This document shows positions 15,186 to 24,627 of a DNA stretch of 64,000 bases, in pieces; within the stretch, counting starts at the first letter, position 1, and each line of letters opens with the position of its first letter. Under the pieces are notes generated by a model. It made no database searches and was not told where the DNA came from. It was given only the letters and a program-made list of their open reading frames with translations. The translations under genes and the position numbers were made by a program. This DNA is from Promethearchaeota archaeon (GTDB taxonomy: Archaea > Asgardarchaeota > Lokiarchaeia > Sigyniarchaeales > SOKP01). The stretch spans positions 1 through 64,000 of the forward strand of contig JABXKD010000007.1 in NCBI GenBank assembly GCA_013375475.1, read 5' to 3'.

Positions 15186-15408
15186 AAATCTTGCTCCCTC
15201 TGTGTTCTGTAAATAAGCTGTGATCATTTGAACATCACAGATTAAAGAAGAAAAATGGAACAACTAAAAAAAAGAGCTAGAACTTAAAAACAAATAGATT
15301 ATAAAAATTTCTCTAAAATTAATATATGGATTTCTAATATCATATTTATAAATCCTTGAAATTACTGGCAGAAAACATTCTAGTGGATTTATCCAGGTCA
15401 TGCTAATC

Positions 15409-15517
15409 CGATGATACAGAAAACATTAAAGAAGAACCTAAATAGAAGATCAGCGGAATTGATAGAATCAGCTGTGAACTCTCTCAAAACATCAGTAAAA
15501 AATTAAAAGAAAAATAG
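15409..15517 (+). pseudogene. Decayed partial copy of the small ORF at 18041
   Basis: Within the roughly 400-bp gap upstream of the DUF4062 gene, this segment aligns with the 3' half of the small ORF at 18041-18265. It reads IKEEPK, stop, KISGIDRI, then ELSQNISKKLKEK and the same TAG, where the other copy reads IKEELKWAVNGIDI and GLSQNISKKLKEK. A TAG replaces the tryptophan codon and the 5' half is missing. The rest of the gap shows no gene. Confidence 0.7.
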
Positions 15518-15595
15518 AAAGAGAAAAAAAACCAGAAGAAAAAATGCAGAATACTTATTATAAAAATAGGATAAATATCTACATTAAAGAAATTT

Positions 15596-17869
15596 GTGAA
15601 TAATCCAATGCTGAAAATTTTTTTGAGCTCTACATTTAGAGATTTAGCCGAACCTCGAGCGAATATCCTGGATAAATTGGATACGGTGTTTGAAGGCGTC
15701 GGTATGGAAGAGTTTATTCCTGACGGCTCTAATTCACAAGAAGTGTGTATACGCGATCTGAAAAAAAGCGATATTGTGATATTTCTTATTTCCCCTTATT
15801 ACGGTACTTTGATGGATACATGTTCGCTAATAAGTGAGTGTAAAGCGGATTGTCCTATGAAAACGGGGAAAGGGTGTATATCTTATACCCATTGTGAATA
15901 TAAGAACACGATTAGCGAAGGGATTTTACATCAAACTTACTTAGTTGAGAAGGGTTGGGACGCTAAGGACTTAAAGAAGGAAGCTCTTGAGTTTAGAGAC
16001 GAAATCGGGAAAGAAATGTGGAAAGGAATCCAAGATGTTAACGATACATCTCTAGTAAAACTAATCTGCAATAATCTAGCAAAAAGGATTATTGAGTGGC
16101 ACACTCTGGACATATTGAACTTCCAGCAGTTTTGCGATAGAGAGGAAATATTTAACGAGTTAATAAATAATATTGATGGAAAGGTTGAGGTTTACGGTGT
16201 GGGCGGAATAGGGAAGACGGCATTAATTCAGGTTGCTCTGCTTATCCAAAAACTAAAAGGAAAGAAAATCATTAGTATCGGAATACCGAAATCTTACGCA
16301 AGCGGCTCCGGATTTGAATCTTTTAGGTTAAAATGTAAAAACGACCAGTATATAGCAGTTTCCCAGAAAGAAATTACAATAAATGATGTAATCAATGCCT
16401 TAGCCGGAGCGAGGATTTTATTTGATCCTGAAGAATTCATAAAAAAACCGAAAAATGAGCTTGTAGAATTATTAGCAAAAAAATTAAGAAACGAAGAAAA
16501 TCTTACTGTTTTCATAGATGACTTTCACTTAGCCACTAAGGATGTGGTAAACCTCGTTAAATCGTTAGATAATATTATACTATCTTCTCGCAAAAATACA
16601 TATATTGCTAAAACAGAAATATGCGTAATCGGTGTTGACGAAGAAGATAGGGAAGATCTTATAAAAATATATTCGCGAGAAGAACTTCCTAAAAAAGTGA
16701 AAGATATAATCAAAAAAATATCTGAAGGTCATCCCTTATCAACAGAACTTTTAGTAAAGAATTATCAAAACATCAACTTTGAAAAACTAAAGGATTTTAA
16801 TCTCGAATATGCTGATGATAAACAAGTAAAAGATTTCTATAAGAGGGTTATTGAAGAGATCTACTCTTCTAATAAGAAGGCTTTAGTCTTACTAAAAAAT
16901 CTAGCTGTAATAAATACAGATTTAAAAAACAACATCAATAGAGAAGTTGTGTATCAATCATACGAAATAGATGATGTTAAAAAATATTTTAAAGAATTAG
17001 TAGATACAGGAATGCTAAAAAAAAGAGAAGGTAAAGAAGAGACATATGAATTTCAATTCGTACACATCCAAGACGCACTAGAAGATATTGCAAGCCATGA
17101 ATATCATCTTAATGCAGTTAAGTATTATAATATTAAAAATGAAATTGTAAGCAAAGATATCAATAATAGAATAGAATCACTATACCATAAAATAATCTCA
17201 AATCCTTCGGAGAATCTAATCGATGAATTTCTTATTATTGTGGACAACCAAATAATTAATAATTATGGCCTAAAACGGTTAATTGATTGTGGAAAGAATT
17301 TAAAACGACTTATCAATGAGAACTATAAAAGAGATATGGAAACCGCATTGAAGAATTTATATTCCCGATTGGAAGCCGCTTATATGGAAGAGTTGATGGA
17401 GCATTTTGAGAGAATTAGAAGAGATCCCATTGAGTTCATCTCAACAACCGCTGTTTTACTCACGGCCATTGGAGAAAATTATGCTAAGATAGGATCTTTT
17501 GAGAAAGCGGAAAAAGAGTATCAAAGAGCATTAAAGATATATAAAAAAATATCCCGGAAAAAACCTGCTTTATATAAACCAAAAATTGCTATGCTACAAA
17601 AATACCTTGGAAATCTCTATTTTAAATTTAAAAGATTTAAGAAGGCTGAAAAAACTTTCCATAAAGCTCTAGAAATCGACTCTAACGATAGTGAAATATG
17701 GTACTCAAAATCATGTGTTGAATCTTTAATGAAATCTAAAGAAAAAGCCCTAGCTTCATTGTTAAGTGCGATTAAACTCGATAAAAAATACATTGAAATG
17801 GCGAAATCCAATAGCGACTTTGAATATATAAAAACATCAAAAGAATTTAAAAAATTAATTGAAGACTAA
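15596..17869 (+). CDS. DUF4062 - STAND NTPase - TPR protein
   Basis: Three parts are visible. Residues 5-115 are a DUF4062 domain (KIFLSSTFRDLAEPR, SDIVIFLISPYYG, SYTHCEY) with a Cys-rich stretch at 76-100. Residues about 180-450 are a STAND/NB-ARC-like NTPase with P-loop GVGGIGKT (201-208), a Walker B-like TVFIDDFH and the GHPLS motif. Winged-helix-like and helical regions follow, then TPRs (about 630-740). This architecture is that of NLR-like signalling ATPases, in which an N-terminal effector or adaptor is triggered by ligand binding to the repeats. In prokaryotes such proteins often act in antiviral defence. The start is GTG 15596 or ATG 15608. Duplicated small-ORF sequence flanks it on both sides. 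Confidence 0.8.
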   Translation: MNNPMLKIFLSSTFRDLAEPRANILDKLDTVFEGVGMEEFIPDGSNSQEVCIRDLKKSDIVIFLISPYYGTLMDTCSLISECKADCPMKTGKGCISYTHCEYKNTISEGILHQTYLVEKGWDAKDLKKEALEFRDEIGKEMWKGIQDVNDTSLVKLICNNLAKRIIEWHTLDILNFQQFCDREEIFNELINNIDGKVEVYGVGGIGKTALIQVALLIQKLKGKKIISIGIPKSYASGSGFESFRLKCKNDQYIAVSQKEITINDVINALAGARILFDPEEFIKKPKNELVELLAKKLRNEENLTVFIDDFHLATKDVVNLVKSLDNIILSSRKNTYIAKTEICVIGVDEEDREDLIKIYSREELPKKVKDIIKKISEGHPLSTELLVKNYQNINFEKLKDFNLEYADDKQVKDFYKRVIEEIYSSNKKALVLLKNLAVINTDLKNNINREVVYQSYEIDDVKKYFKELVDTGMLKKREGKEETYEFQFVHIQDALEDIASHEYHLNAVKYYNIKNEIVSKDINNRIESLYHKIISNPSENLIDEFLIIVDNQIINNYGLKRLIDCGKNLKRLINENYKRDMETALKNLYSRLEAAYMEELMEHFERIRRDPIEFISTTAVLLTAIGENYAKIGSFEKAEKEYQRALKIYKKISRKKPALYKPKIAMLQKYLGNLYFKFKRFKKAEKTFHKALEIDSNDSEIWYSKSCVESLMKSKEKALASLLSAIKLDKKYIEMAKSNSDFEYIKTSKEFKKLIED

Positions 17870-18040: not shown

Positions 18041-18265
18041 ATAGCAGAAAATCAATTAAATAATGATAAAGATAAAGTTCCAAAATGGGAGACACTTGAG
18101 GAACTTATCGCACTTTTAATAGAAGTAAGAGTTGATTTAACGATGTTTTGCAAATCTGTTAATGATGAGCGGATAAAAGAAGAACTTAAATGGGCAGTTA
18201 ACGGAATTGATATCGTTGGATGTGGACTCTCTCAAAATATAAGTAAAAAGTTAAAAGAAAAATAG
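18041..18265 (+). CDS. Small hypothetical protein, ATA-start candidate
   Basis: An open frame of about 74 residues downstream of the DUF4062-STAND gene (KWETLEELIALLIEVRVDLT ... SQNISKKLKEK), too short and start-less for the ORF track. No ATG, GTG or TTG exists in frame before the conserved part; an ATA at 18041 follows a GGAG ten bases upstream. It is acidic-amphipathic and probably all helical, with no family recognised. A decayed copy lies upstream of the DUF4062 gene, which supports the reading frame as once coding. It could be a partner of the STAND protein or itself a remnant. Confidence 0.45.
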   Translation: MAENQLNNDKDKVPKWETLEELIALLIEVRVDLTMFCKSVNDERIKEELKWAVNGIDIVGCGLSQNISKKLKEK

Positions 18266-18292
18266 AAAGAAAAAATTAATTTAATAATTTAA

Positions 18293-23115: not shown

Positions 23116-24627
23116 TCAATCTATACTTACATCGTATTTTTGAATCGTTTCATTTCCAAGAATGTCATTTACTTTTACTGCTATTGTGTAATTTCCTTGT
23201 GTAGTATAGGGATAAGATATTGAGGATAATTTTAATTTACGGTTTTTTAGTGTTCTATACGATATCCAAGTCGTGGTAAAATAATCGTTTTGACAATAAA
23301 AATCTATAGCCCAACTATCAATCCAATCAGTAAAAGTTTCAATCTTAATTTTGAGTTTATCATTAATTAAATTTAAATCTAGGCCAAAATAATCTGCTAA
23401 TTCAATAGATATTTTTTTTCTCTCTTTAATCATTCTAATCTCAAATTTGCCCTTCTTAATTTCTGGCTGATCATTATTAATTCTCAAAATTCTAAATGGT
23501 TGGGGAAGTTCGTCGTATTTTTGATCCCAATTTATGAGGTCATTACTATTCCATACATCAAGAATTCTTTTGCGACTTATGTTTATCGCATGATTTCCTA
23601 TATCTGAACCAATCCATCTTCGTCCAAGTTTTTCTGCCACTACTAATGTTGTGCCAGTTCCACAAAAAAAATCTGCTACGATATCACCTTTATCTGAAGA
23701 AGCAAGAATTATCCTTTTCAACAATCTTTCAGGTTTTTGTGTGGAAAACGCTTGATATTCTGTAGTGTTTGCCCTGATATAAGGTAAATCCGTCCAAACA
23801 TCACGAGGAAAGATTCCCATGTTTGATATGTATACTTTCTGCGAAAGTTTCTTACCGTTATGACTTCCTCCGCGATGGTAGTAGGTCCCTTTATCGTCGT
23901 TTTTTAAAGCAAACTTAACTCGATCAGAATACTCCATATAAATTTTAGGATCGTCGTTAAATGTGTAATCTTTAGATTTCGTATAAAATAAAATCGAATC
24001 ATAAGAGCGAATAAAGAATCTTCTTGTTTTAGCCGATGCTGCAGGGTATGCCCAAATTATCTCATTTTTAAAATTTTCTTTTCCAAAAATTTCATCCATT
24101 ATTATTTTTATATAATGGGAAACATGCCAATCTAGATGTATATAAATGCTTCCATCTTCTGCGAGCAAATCTTTCATGATAATTAATCTCTCATATAAAA
24201 AATCAATATAAGCATCAATACCTCCATTCCAGGAATCTGAATAAGCCTTCGAGACTTCAAACGCGTTCTTTTCACCTATGAGCACTTTGGATTCGAAATC
24301 TCCTCCAGTCCCAAAAGGTGGATCGATATATATTAATTTGATTTTTTTCGAGTAAATGGGGAGCAAAGAATTCATAATATCCTTATTATCTCCTTGGATT
24401 AAGCAATTTATCATTCCTTTGGAAGATTCTTTACGCTTCTGATATTCTTCCATTCTTTTTTTAATTAGTTGAGTACGAGATCCAAAATTATCAATTATTG
24501 GGTATTTAAGTAATTCTTTTGTATTGAAAGGATGAACTTGTTGAGACTTATTCGTGTTTGACATTCTAAGTTTTTCTTTATCGTTCCAATTTAGATTCGG
24601 CATTATTAATCCACAATAAGATGGCAA
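23116..24627 (-). CDS. Beta-class DNA methyltransferase (orphan, type III Mod-like)
   Basis: An amino-methyltransferase for DNA adenine or cytosine with beta-class motif order: DPPF (102-105) precedes the AdoMet-binding FCGTGT (320-325, ADFFCGTGTTLVVAEKLG). The C-terminal region after about residue 400 ends with a beta-sandwich-like segment (YTTQGNYTIAVKVNDILGNE) as seen on some type III modification enzymes. No restriction endonuclease, helicase or specificity gene is adjacent. Start alternatives are TTG 24627 and ATG 24603; the signature is unaffected. It interrupts an otherwise translational gene run, suggesting insertion. Confidence 0.88.
   Translation of the reverse strand: MPSYCGLIMPNLNWNDKEKLRMSNTNKSQQVHPFNTKELLKYPIIDNFGSRTQLIKKRMEEYQKRKESSKGMINCLIQGDNKDIMNSLLPIYSKKIKLIYIDPPFGTGGDFESKVLIGEKNAFEVSKAYSDSWNGGIDAYIDFLYERLIIMKDLLAEDGSIYIHLDWHVSHYIKIIMDEIFGKENFKNEIIWAYPAASAKTRRFFIRSYDSILFYTKSKDYTFNDDPKIYMEYSDRVKFALKNDDKGTYYHRGGSHNGKKLSQKVYISNMGIFPRDVWTDLPYIRANTTEYQAFSTQKPERLLKRIILASSDKGDIVADFFCGTGTTLVVAEKLGRRWIGSDIGNHAINISRKRILDVWNSNDLINWDQKYDELPQPFRILRINNDQPEIKKGKFEIRMIKERKKISIELADYFGLDLNLINDKLKIKIETFTDWIDSWAIDFYCQNDYFTTTWISYRTLKNRKLKLSSISYPYTTQGNYTIAVKVNDILGNETIQKYDVSID

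What the first reader, a model, noticed from the sequence alone, without database searches (positions are those of the whole stretch)
15596..17869. NLR-like DUF4062-STAND-TPR protein in an Asgard-like genome
Seen: N-terminal DUF4062, GVGGIGKT NTPase, GHPLS motif and C-terminal TPRs in one chain. Known: such effector-STAND-repeat proteins act in prokaryotic antiviral defence and resemble eukaryotic NLRs. The function and trigger in this lineage are not described from this sequence.
Basis: partly seen in the sequence, partly recalled or inferred. Interest (0 to 1): 0.6.

Follow-up and report, generated by a model that had tools for sequence, protein, structure and literature searches.

The report
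TIR-like STAND-TPR immune receptor in Lokiarchaeota
A Lokiarchaeal gene encodes a one-protein alarm (a TIR-like NAD-cleaving domain, a molecular switch and a repeat-built sensor) that probably kills or stalls infected cells, and it sits at a spot beside a chaperonin gene where related genomes carry other cargo, in one case antiviral genes.

Summary
ORF 15596-17869 (+, 757 aa) has an N-terminal DUF4062 domain, a STAND NTPase (GVGGIGKT, IDDFH, GHPLS), a winged-helix region and C-terminal TPRs. The genome is Lokiarchaeal.

DUF4062 was recently reported to be a TIR-like NADase (KpSwz, human TEP1; PMC13174449). The reported catalytic Glu aligns with E101 here, which is invariant in 14 aligned homologues. 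The modelled domain matches TIR structures best; the full model matches Apaf-1, CED-4, Avs3 and MalT.

The subfamily carries four invariant cysteines (C76, C82, C86, C100), the last abutting E101, absent from Swarozyc-type DUF4062. It is patchy: 9 of 228 Asgard genomes, plus a few methanogens, an altiarchaeon and a planctomycete.

The gene lies between direct repeats downstream of a thermosome gene. A sister genome has one repeat and no receptor there. A second genome has a homologue there inverted; another has a 13-kb insert with a CBASS-like cyclase, NucC-like nuclease, HerA and GIY-YIG genes.

Best reading: an autoinhibited receptor whose TPR sensor detects an unknown viral trigger, oligomerises through the NTPase and activates NAD+ destruction (abortive infection). 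Enzyme activity, trigger and antiviral effect are untested. New variant of a known kind.

The parts
15596..17869 (+). DUF4062-STAND-TPR receptor gene (757 aa; GTG start, alternative ATG at 15608)
   Evidence: homologues
15614..15907 (+). DUF4062 TIR-like domain (aa 7-104)
   Evidence: Pfam PF13271 E=1.5e-15; AF2 domain model pLDDT 84, pTM 0.83; best PDB matches are TIR domains
15821..15853 (+). Cys cluster C76, C82, C86 (CSLISECKADC)
   Evidence: invariant in 12 subfamily members, absent from two other DUF4062 proteins; pattern also in G067
15887..15901 (+). THCEY motif: C100 and predicted catalytic E101 (codon 15896-15898)
   Evidence: E101 invariant in 14 of 14 aligned homologues; equivalent by motif to KpSwz E97
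16142..16624 (+). P-loop NTPase core (aa ~183-343)
   Evidence: model secondary structure; AAA_16 sub-threshold; profile match to PH0952
16196..16219 (+). Walker A GVGGIGKT (aa 201-208)
16514..16528 (+). Walker B-like IDDFH (aa 307-311)
   Evidence: D308, D309 and H311 invariant in six homologues
16727..16741 (+). STAND GxP-type motif GHPLS (aa 378-382)
   Evidence: G378-H379-P380 invariant in six homologues
16817..17086 (+). winged-helix region (aa ~408-497)
   Evidence: secondary structure of the model; aligned with PH0952
17096..17866 (+). all-helical arm and TPR sensor with TPR-end domain (aa ~501-757)
15382..15527 (+). direct repeat, dehydratase-proximal copy (degenerate 3' part of the small ORF)
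   Evidence: 75% identical to 18130-18275, spacing 2748; only these two full copies in the genome
18130..18275 (+). direct repeat, thermosome-proximal copy
   Evidence: single copy in the empty site of G008
18041..18265 (+). conserved ~74-codon open frame next to the thermosome; its 3' end forms the repeat
   Evidence: seven intact copies in the genus, differences by codon position 257/84/393; start codon unclear

Best explanation
A single-protein intracellular immune receptor. In the resting state the TPR sensor and arm hold the STAND NTPase closed (ADP-bound), so the N-terminal TIR-like DUF4062 domains stay apart. When the TPR part binds an unknown viral or damage signal, the NTPase opens, exchanges nucleotide and oligomerises. 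Clustering activates the DUF4062 domains, which use E101 to cleave NAD(P)+. Depletion of the cofactor stops the cell before the virus is released (abortive infection). Shown here by sequence or model: domain order, NTPase motifs, the conserved Glu, TIR-like fold, apoptosome/NLR-like overall fold, variable-site location, patchy distribution. Inferred: NADase activity, oligomerisation, trigger and antiviral effect.
For: DUF4062 above cut-off, TPRs and STAND motifs in one chain. E101 invariant in all aligned homologues, including an Asgard Swarozyc-type protein, at the position of the reported catalytic Glu of KpSwz, needed for NAD+ loss and phage defence (PMC13174449). The modelled domain's best PDB matches include plant RPS4/RPP1, AbTir and SARM1 TIR domains. 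The full model matches Apaf-1, CED-4, Dark, Avs3, MalT and RPP1 (E 3e-7 to 1e-5), and the profile matches the TPR-STAND PH0952 (E=3.4e-7), whose resting state is autoinhibited by arm and sensor (PMC6468293). Variable site: sister G008 has a single repeat and no receptor; G020 carries a 55%-identical homologue there in the other orientation; G010 carries a 13-kb insert with a CBASS-type cyclase (1e-10), NucC-like nuclease (4e-15), HerA, GIY-YIG, a weak HEPN match and a DEDDh exonuclease. Elsewhere: TIR and SLOG/TPR-S genes in G037, TIR in G023, Csx1/CARF-PDDEXK in Methanothrix, a TIR protein in an altiarchaeon. Only 9 of 228 Asgard genomes carry the Cys-cluster subfamily.
Against: No enzymatic or phage data for this subfamily. 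Human NWD1, NWD2 and NPHP3, which have DUF4062 next to a NACHT ATPase, showed no NADase activity in vitro (PMC13174449). No PADLOC model hits the protein (the library predates the DUF4062 work). Some homologue neighbourhoods (Methanoregulaceae, Methanotrichaceae) show no clear defence gene (one weak hit). Enrichment near defence genes was not tested against a control. Codon usage is ordinary and Loki members group together, so recent horizontal gain is not shown.
Confidence: 0.68

Rival explanations
1. A signalling rather than depleting TIR-like receptor: DUF4062 makes a nucleotide signal or base-exchange product from NAD+ (Thoeris-like) that activates a separate effector, or acts as a nucleoside deoxyribosyltransferase-like enzyme.
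For: TIR and NDT folds are related and an NDT structure is among the matches (2a0k). The authors of PMC13174449 say that DUF4062 proteins in operons may use more complex mechanisms. The Cys cluster beside the catalytic Glu could change the chemistry.
Against: No constant partner gene was seen: neighbours differ between genomes and the window copy stands alone between repeats.
Confidence: 0.15
2. A non-immune TPR-STAND regulator (MalT or PH0952 type) that responds to a metabolite or protein, with DUF4062 as a catalytically silent assembly module.
For: The best solved relative by profile is PH0952, described as a putative transcription regulator. Human NWD1, NWD2 and NPHP3 were inactive as NADases.
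Against: No DNA-binding effector domain was found. E101 is invariant where a silent module could lose it. Distribution is patchy and tied to a variable site.
Confidence: 0.1
3. A decayed or reduced receptor: the short TPR tail reflects loss of repeats relative to 1033-1379-aa relatives, and the copy no longer senses anything.
For: 757 aa against 1138-1379 aa in G020, G023 and G037; about three TPRs remain.
Against: Intact frame, all motifs present, and the C-terminal TPR-end domain retained.
Confidence: 0.07

Closest known systems
Swarozyc (KpSwz), bacterial DUF4062 NADase antiphage system (PMC13174449; PDB 10wc)
   Same: N-terminal TIR-like DUF4062 with the same catalytic Glu motif (S-[YF]-T-x-x-E-[YF])
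   Different: Swarozyc has a winged/HTH auxiliary domain that binds the phage portal and no NTPase or TPR; here STAND plus TPR, and four extra cysteines beside the active site
Human TEP1, NWD1, NWD2 and NPHP3 (DUF4062 next to a NACHT ATPase)
   Same: DUF4062 followed by a STAND-class NTPase; TPRs as in NPHP3
   Different: No NACHT or HTH_NWD1 match shown for the focal protein; lacks the VDLRWG stretch seen in the TEP1/NPHP3-like Asgard proteins; TPR_NPHP3 only sub-threshold; Cys cluster present
TPR-sensor STAND ATPases: PH0952 of Pyrococcus horikoshii and MalT (PMC6468293)
   Same: NTPase, winged helix, arm and TPR sensor; profile match to 6mfv over the NTPase and winged-helix part; MalT among the fold matches
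   Different: Here the effector is an N-terminal TIR-like enzyme
Prokaryotic effector-STAND-repeat immune receptors (Avs, bacterial NACHT proteins, TIR-NLR)
   Same: Effector, STAND and repeat-sensor layout; Avs3 among the fold matches
   Different: No PADLOC Avs, NACHT or TIR-NLR model hits; effector is DUF4062

Membership tests
STAND NTPase | Walker A, Walker B with acidic pair, downstream GxP-type motif | tested here: met
   GVGGIGKT, IDDFH, GHPLS; core residues invariant in six homologues
STAND NTPase | C-terminal superstructure-forming repeats and N-terminal effector | tested here: met
   TPRs and DUF4062
STAND NTPase | Nucleotide-driven oligomerisation | not testable with these tools
   needs biochemistry
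NACHT or NB-ARC clade | Pfam NACHT or NB-ARC above cut-off | tested here: not met
   neither among the 25 of 27 matches shown at E<=1; AAA_16 and nSTAND models sub-threshold
DUF4062 TIR-like NADase | DUF4062 domain above curated cut-off | tested here: met
   57.6 bits against 24.7
DUF4062 TIR-like NADase | Catalytic Glu equivalent to KpSwz E97 | tested here: met
   E101, 14 of 14 rows; equivalence to E97 inferred from the motif and the E97A construct sequence
DUF4062 TIR-like NADase | TIR-like fold | tested here: met
   AF2 model; best PDB match is a TIR domain, E=9e-4
DUF4062 TIR-like NADase | NAD+ hydrolysis | not testable with these tools
   no assay
Swarozyc system | C-terminal portal-binding winged auxiliary domain directly after DUF4062 | tested here: not met
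   NTPase and TPR follow DUF4062
TEP1/NWD1/NPHP3 group | DUF4062, NACHT, NWD1-type winged helix, WD40 or NPHP3 TPR | tested here: not met
   no NACHT or HTH_NWD1 listed; TPR_NPHP3 24.1 against 100 bits; other Asgard proteins come closer
Avs / known PADLOC defence families | match to a PADLOC model | tested here: not met
   no family at E<=1
Defence gene | patchy distribution and location at a variable site with defence cargo | tested here: met
   9 of 228 Asgard genomes; empty site; CBASS/HerA/GIY-YIG insert at the same site
Defence gene | statistical enrichment near defence genes | not tested
   neighbours examined one by one, no control set
Defence gene | protection against a virus | not testable with these tools
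   needs a challenge assay

The most novel reading that the evidence does not exclude
The four invariant cysteines (C76, C82, C86, C100), with C100 directly before the catalytic E101, bind a metal or form redox-switched bonds that gate the TIR-like active site. That would give an archaeal NADase immune receptor with a metal or redox safety catch, not described in the main DUF4062 paper held (its text has no mention of cysteine or zinc).
Probability: 0.25. Interest if true: 0.6.

Novelty: new variant of a known kind. Interest (0 to 1): 0.45.

Why it matters
If right, Lokiarchaeota, close relatives of eukaryotes, use an Apaf-1-shaped receptor armed with the same kind of TIR-like NADase as human vault protein TEP1. 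That joins two strands characterised apart in prokaryotes: DUF4062 NADases (Swarozyc) and TPR-sensor STAND switches. It gives a concrete residue (E101) and a Cys cluster to test, and a variable genomic site in which to look for further Asgard antiviral systems.

Tried and rejected
PADLOC and NCBIfam name no specific system for the protein. Searches of viral contigs, plasmids and phages gave no relative, so a mobile-element carrier is not shown. Recent horizontal import was considered and not supported: codon usage is ordinary (last of 51 genes by deviation) and Loki members group together with 100/98 support; the Asgard versus methanogen/altiarchaeal split itself is weak (62/55). A dispersed-repeat explanation of the flanking repeats was rejected: apart from 27-37-bp fragments elsewhere, the repeat occurs only at this locus in the genome. 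Membership in Swarozyc, Avs, NACHT and the TEP1/NPHP3 group was tested and not met.

Full report
Observation. The ORF at 15596-17869 is real and intact. Pfam finds DUF4062 well above its cut-off (aa 7-104) and TPRs above cut-off near the C-terminus, with AAA_16 below cut-off in between; NCBIfam adds a TPR-end domain at aa 702-756. The start may be ATG 15608 rather than GTG 15596, because most homologues begin at that Met.

Relatives. Across 97 relatives, full-length homologues occur in G023 (58%), G020 (55%) and G037 (40%), with a split one in G029; four of these match public Lokiarchaeota MAGs. The same subfamily occurs in an altiarchaeon, Methanoregulaceae, Methanotrichaceae, Methanothrix, a Heimdallarchaeote and a planctomycete contig. 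DUF4062 of any type is in 26 of 228 Asgard genomes, and the Cys-cluster form in nine (G000, G020, G023, G029, G037, G067, G100, G154, G168). No relative was found in viral contigs, plasmids or phages at the sensitivities used. A tree of the core groups the Loki sequences (100/98); the split from the methanogen and altiarchaeal sequences is weakly supported (62/55).

The effector domain. A 2026 preprint reports DUF4062 as a TIR-like NADase: KpSwz (Swarozyc) gives E97-dependent phage defence and NAD+ loss and is triggered by a phage portal, and human TEP1 is an E1008-dependent NADase (PMC13174449). KpSwz is the only convincing solved relative of the domain by sequence. The motif ISYTHCEY places E101 at the catalytic Glu, and E101 is invariant in 14 of 14 aligned sequences, including an Asgard Swarozyc-type protein. 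The equivalence to E97 is inferred from the motif and from the Ala in the E97A construct. The AF2 model of the domain (pLDDT 84, pTM 0.83) has plant TIR-NLR TIR domains, AbTir and SARM1 among its best PDB matches, though only the first reaches E<0.001. Four cysteines, C76, C82, C86 and C100, are invariant in the 12 aligned subfamily members and missing in the two other DUF4062 proteins.

The switch and sensor. The profile matches PH0952, a TPR-sensor STAND (E=3.4e-7), for which arm and sensor contacts keep the NTPase closed (PMC6468293). The full-length model (pLDDT 81, pTM 0.52) has Apaf-1 as its best PDB match (E=3e-7), then CED-4, Dark, Avs3, MalT and RPP1. TM-scores are low, as expected for a multi-domain model with uncertain domain packing. 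Pfam NACHT and NB-ARC are not among the matches shown, so I call it STAND without assigning a clade.

The place. The gene is bounded by direct repeats 15382-15527 and 18130-18275 (75% identical, spacing 2748), found as full copies only here in the genome. The second is the 3' end of a conserved ~74-codon frame whose differences among seven genomes fall mostly at third codon positions (257/84/393). In sister G008 (thermosome 99% identical) the stretch between thermosome and serine dehydratase holds one repeat and no receptor; that repeat aligns with both flanks of the window's receptor (96% over 762 bp and 87% over 500 bp). So receptor plus one repeat copy was gained here or lost there. Other congeners have different genes at this junction, often with further repeat copies: GIY-YIG genes in G002, G003, G016 and G023, a DUF4062-STAND-TPR gene in the opposite orientation in G020, and in G010 about 13 kb with GIY-YIG, HerA, a Ras-like GTPase, a DEDDh exonuclease, a weak HEPN match, a CBASS-type cyclase (1e-10) and a NucC-like nuclease (4e-15). 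I call this a variable site; that it is a defence hotspot rests mainly on G010 plus the two receptors. How the repeats arise is not known.

Other homologue neighbourhoods. G037: RelA/SpoT-TPR-S-SLOG protein, TIR and TIR-LRR genes. G023: TIR, a TIR-effector-like protein, a Ras-like GTPase and a headless winged-helix-TPR protein. Methanothrix: Csx1/CARF-PDDEXK (7.7e-48). Altiarchaeon: a TIR protein. Methanoregulaceae and Methanotrichaceae: no clear defence gene. This is a list of examples without a control.

Mechanism. The best-supported account is an autoinhibited receptor that oligomerises on sensing an unknown trigger and destroys NAD(P)+. Steps shown: domains, residues, fold, location. Steps inferred: catalysis, oligomerisation, trigger, abortive infection. 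The main caution is that human NWD1, NWD2 and NPHP3, with DUF4062 beside a NACHT ATPase, were inactive as NADases in the same study.

Novelty. NLR-type systems have been reported in Asgard archaea, but the 2024 Asgard survey does not mention DUF4062 in its main text (PMC11291487), and only nine papers in the held library contain the term. The layout is a new variant of a known kind.

Noticed in passing
L072:9133-13596 (G064) and L073:6245-10495 (G018): Large Asgard-bin proteins (1487 and 1416 aa) with a TEP1/NWD1-like DUF4062 start (VFVSSTFKDMEAER...VDLRWGI) and C-terminal WD40 propellers, including matches to TEP1 propeller models. Possible prokaryotic counterparts of TEP1/NWD1; bin contamination not excluded.
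   Followed up: partly
L075:6437-10759 (G069): DUF4062-STAND protein with strong NPHP3-type TPR array (TPR_NPHP3 326 bits) and a weak NWD1-type winged helix.
   Followed up: partly
L055:9245-10975 and similar genes in more than a dozen Loki genomes: Headless relatives: winged helix plus TPRs (about 550-645 aa) without DUF4062 or P-loop, in several genomes next to a GNAT-like gene; look like truncated NLR sensors kept in the lineage.
   Followed up: partly
L062:3-3701 (G015) and L051:10094-13501 (G023): Apparent operon of a TIR protein, a headless winged-helix-TPR protein and a Ras-like small GTPase; could be a split receptor wired to a eukaryote-like GTPase.
   Followed up: partly
L023:1474-2541 (G118): Asgard DUF4062 protein of 355 aa resembling KpSwz (Swarozyc-type), with the TEMEY catalytic motif.
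   Followed up: no
window 18041-18265: Conserved ~74-codon frame beside the thermosome with a coding-like substitution pattern but no ATG/GTG/TTG at its conserved start (Ile codon); its 3' end recurs as local repeats between inserted genes in several genomes.
   Followed up: partly
window 23116-24627 (-): DNA methyltransferase resembling type III modification enzymes (PADLOC MTase_III 6e-82); no restriction partner noticed nearby.
   Followed up: no
L128:12164-13979 (G010): CBASS-like pair, oligonucleotide cyclase plus NucC-like/DUF6602 nuclease, on opposite strands in the 13-kb insert at the thermosome site.
   Followed up: partly
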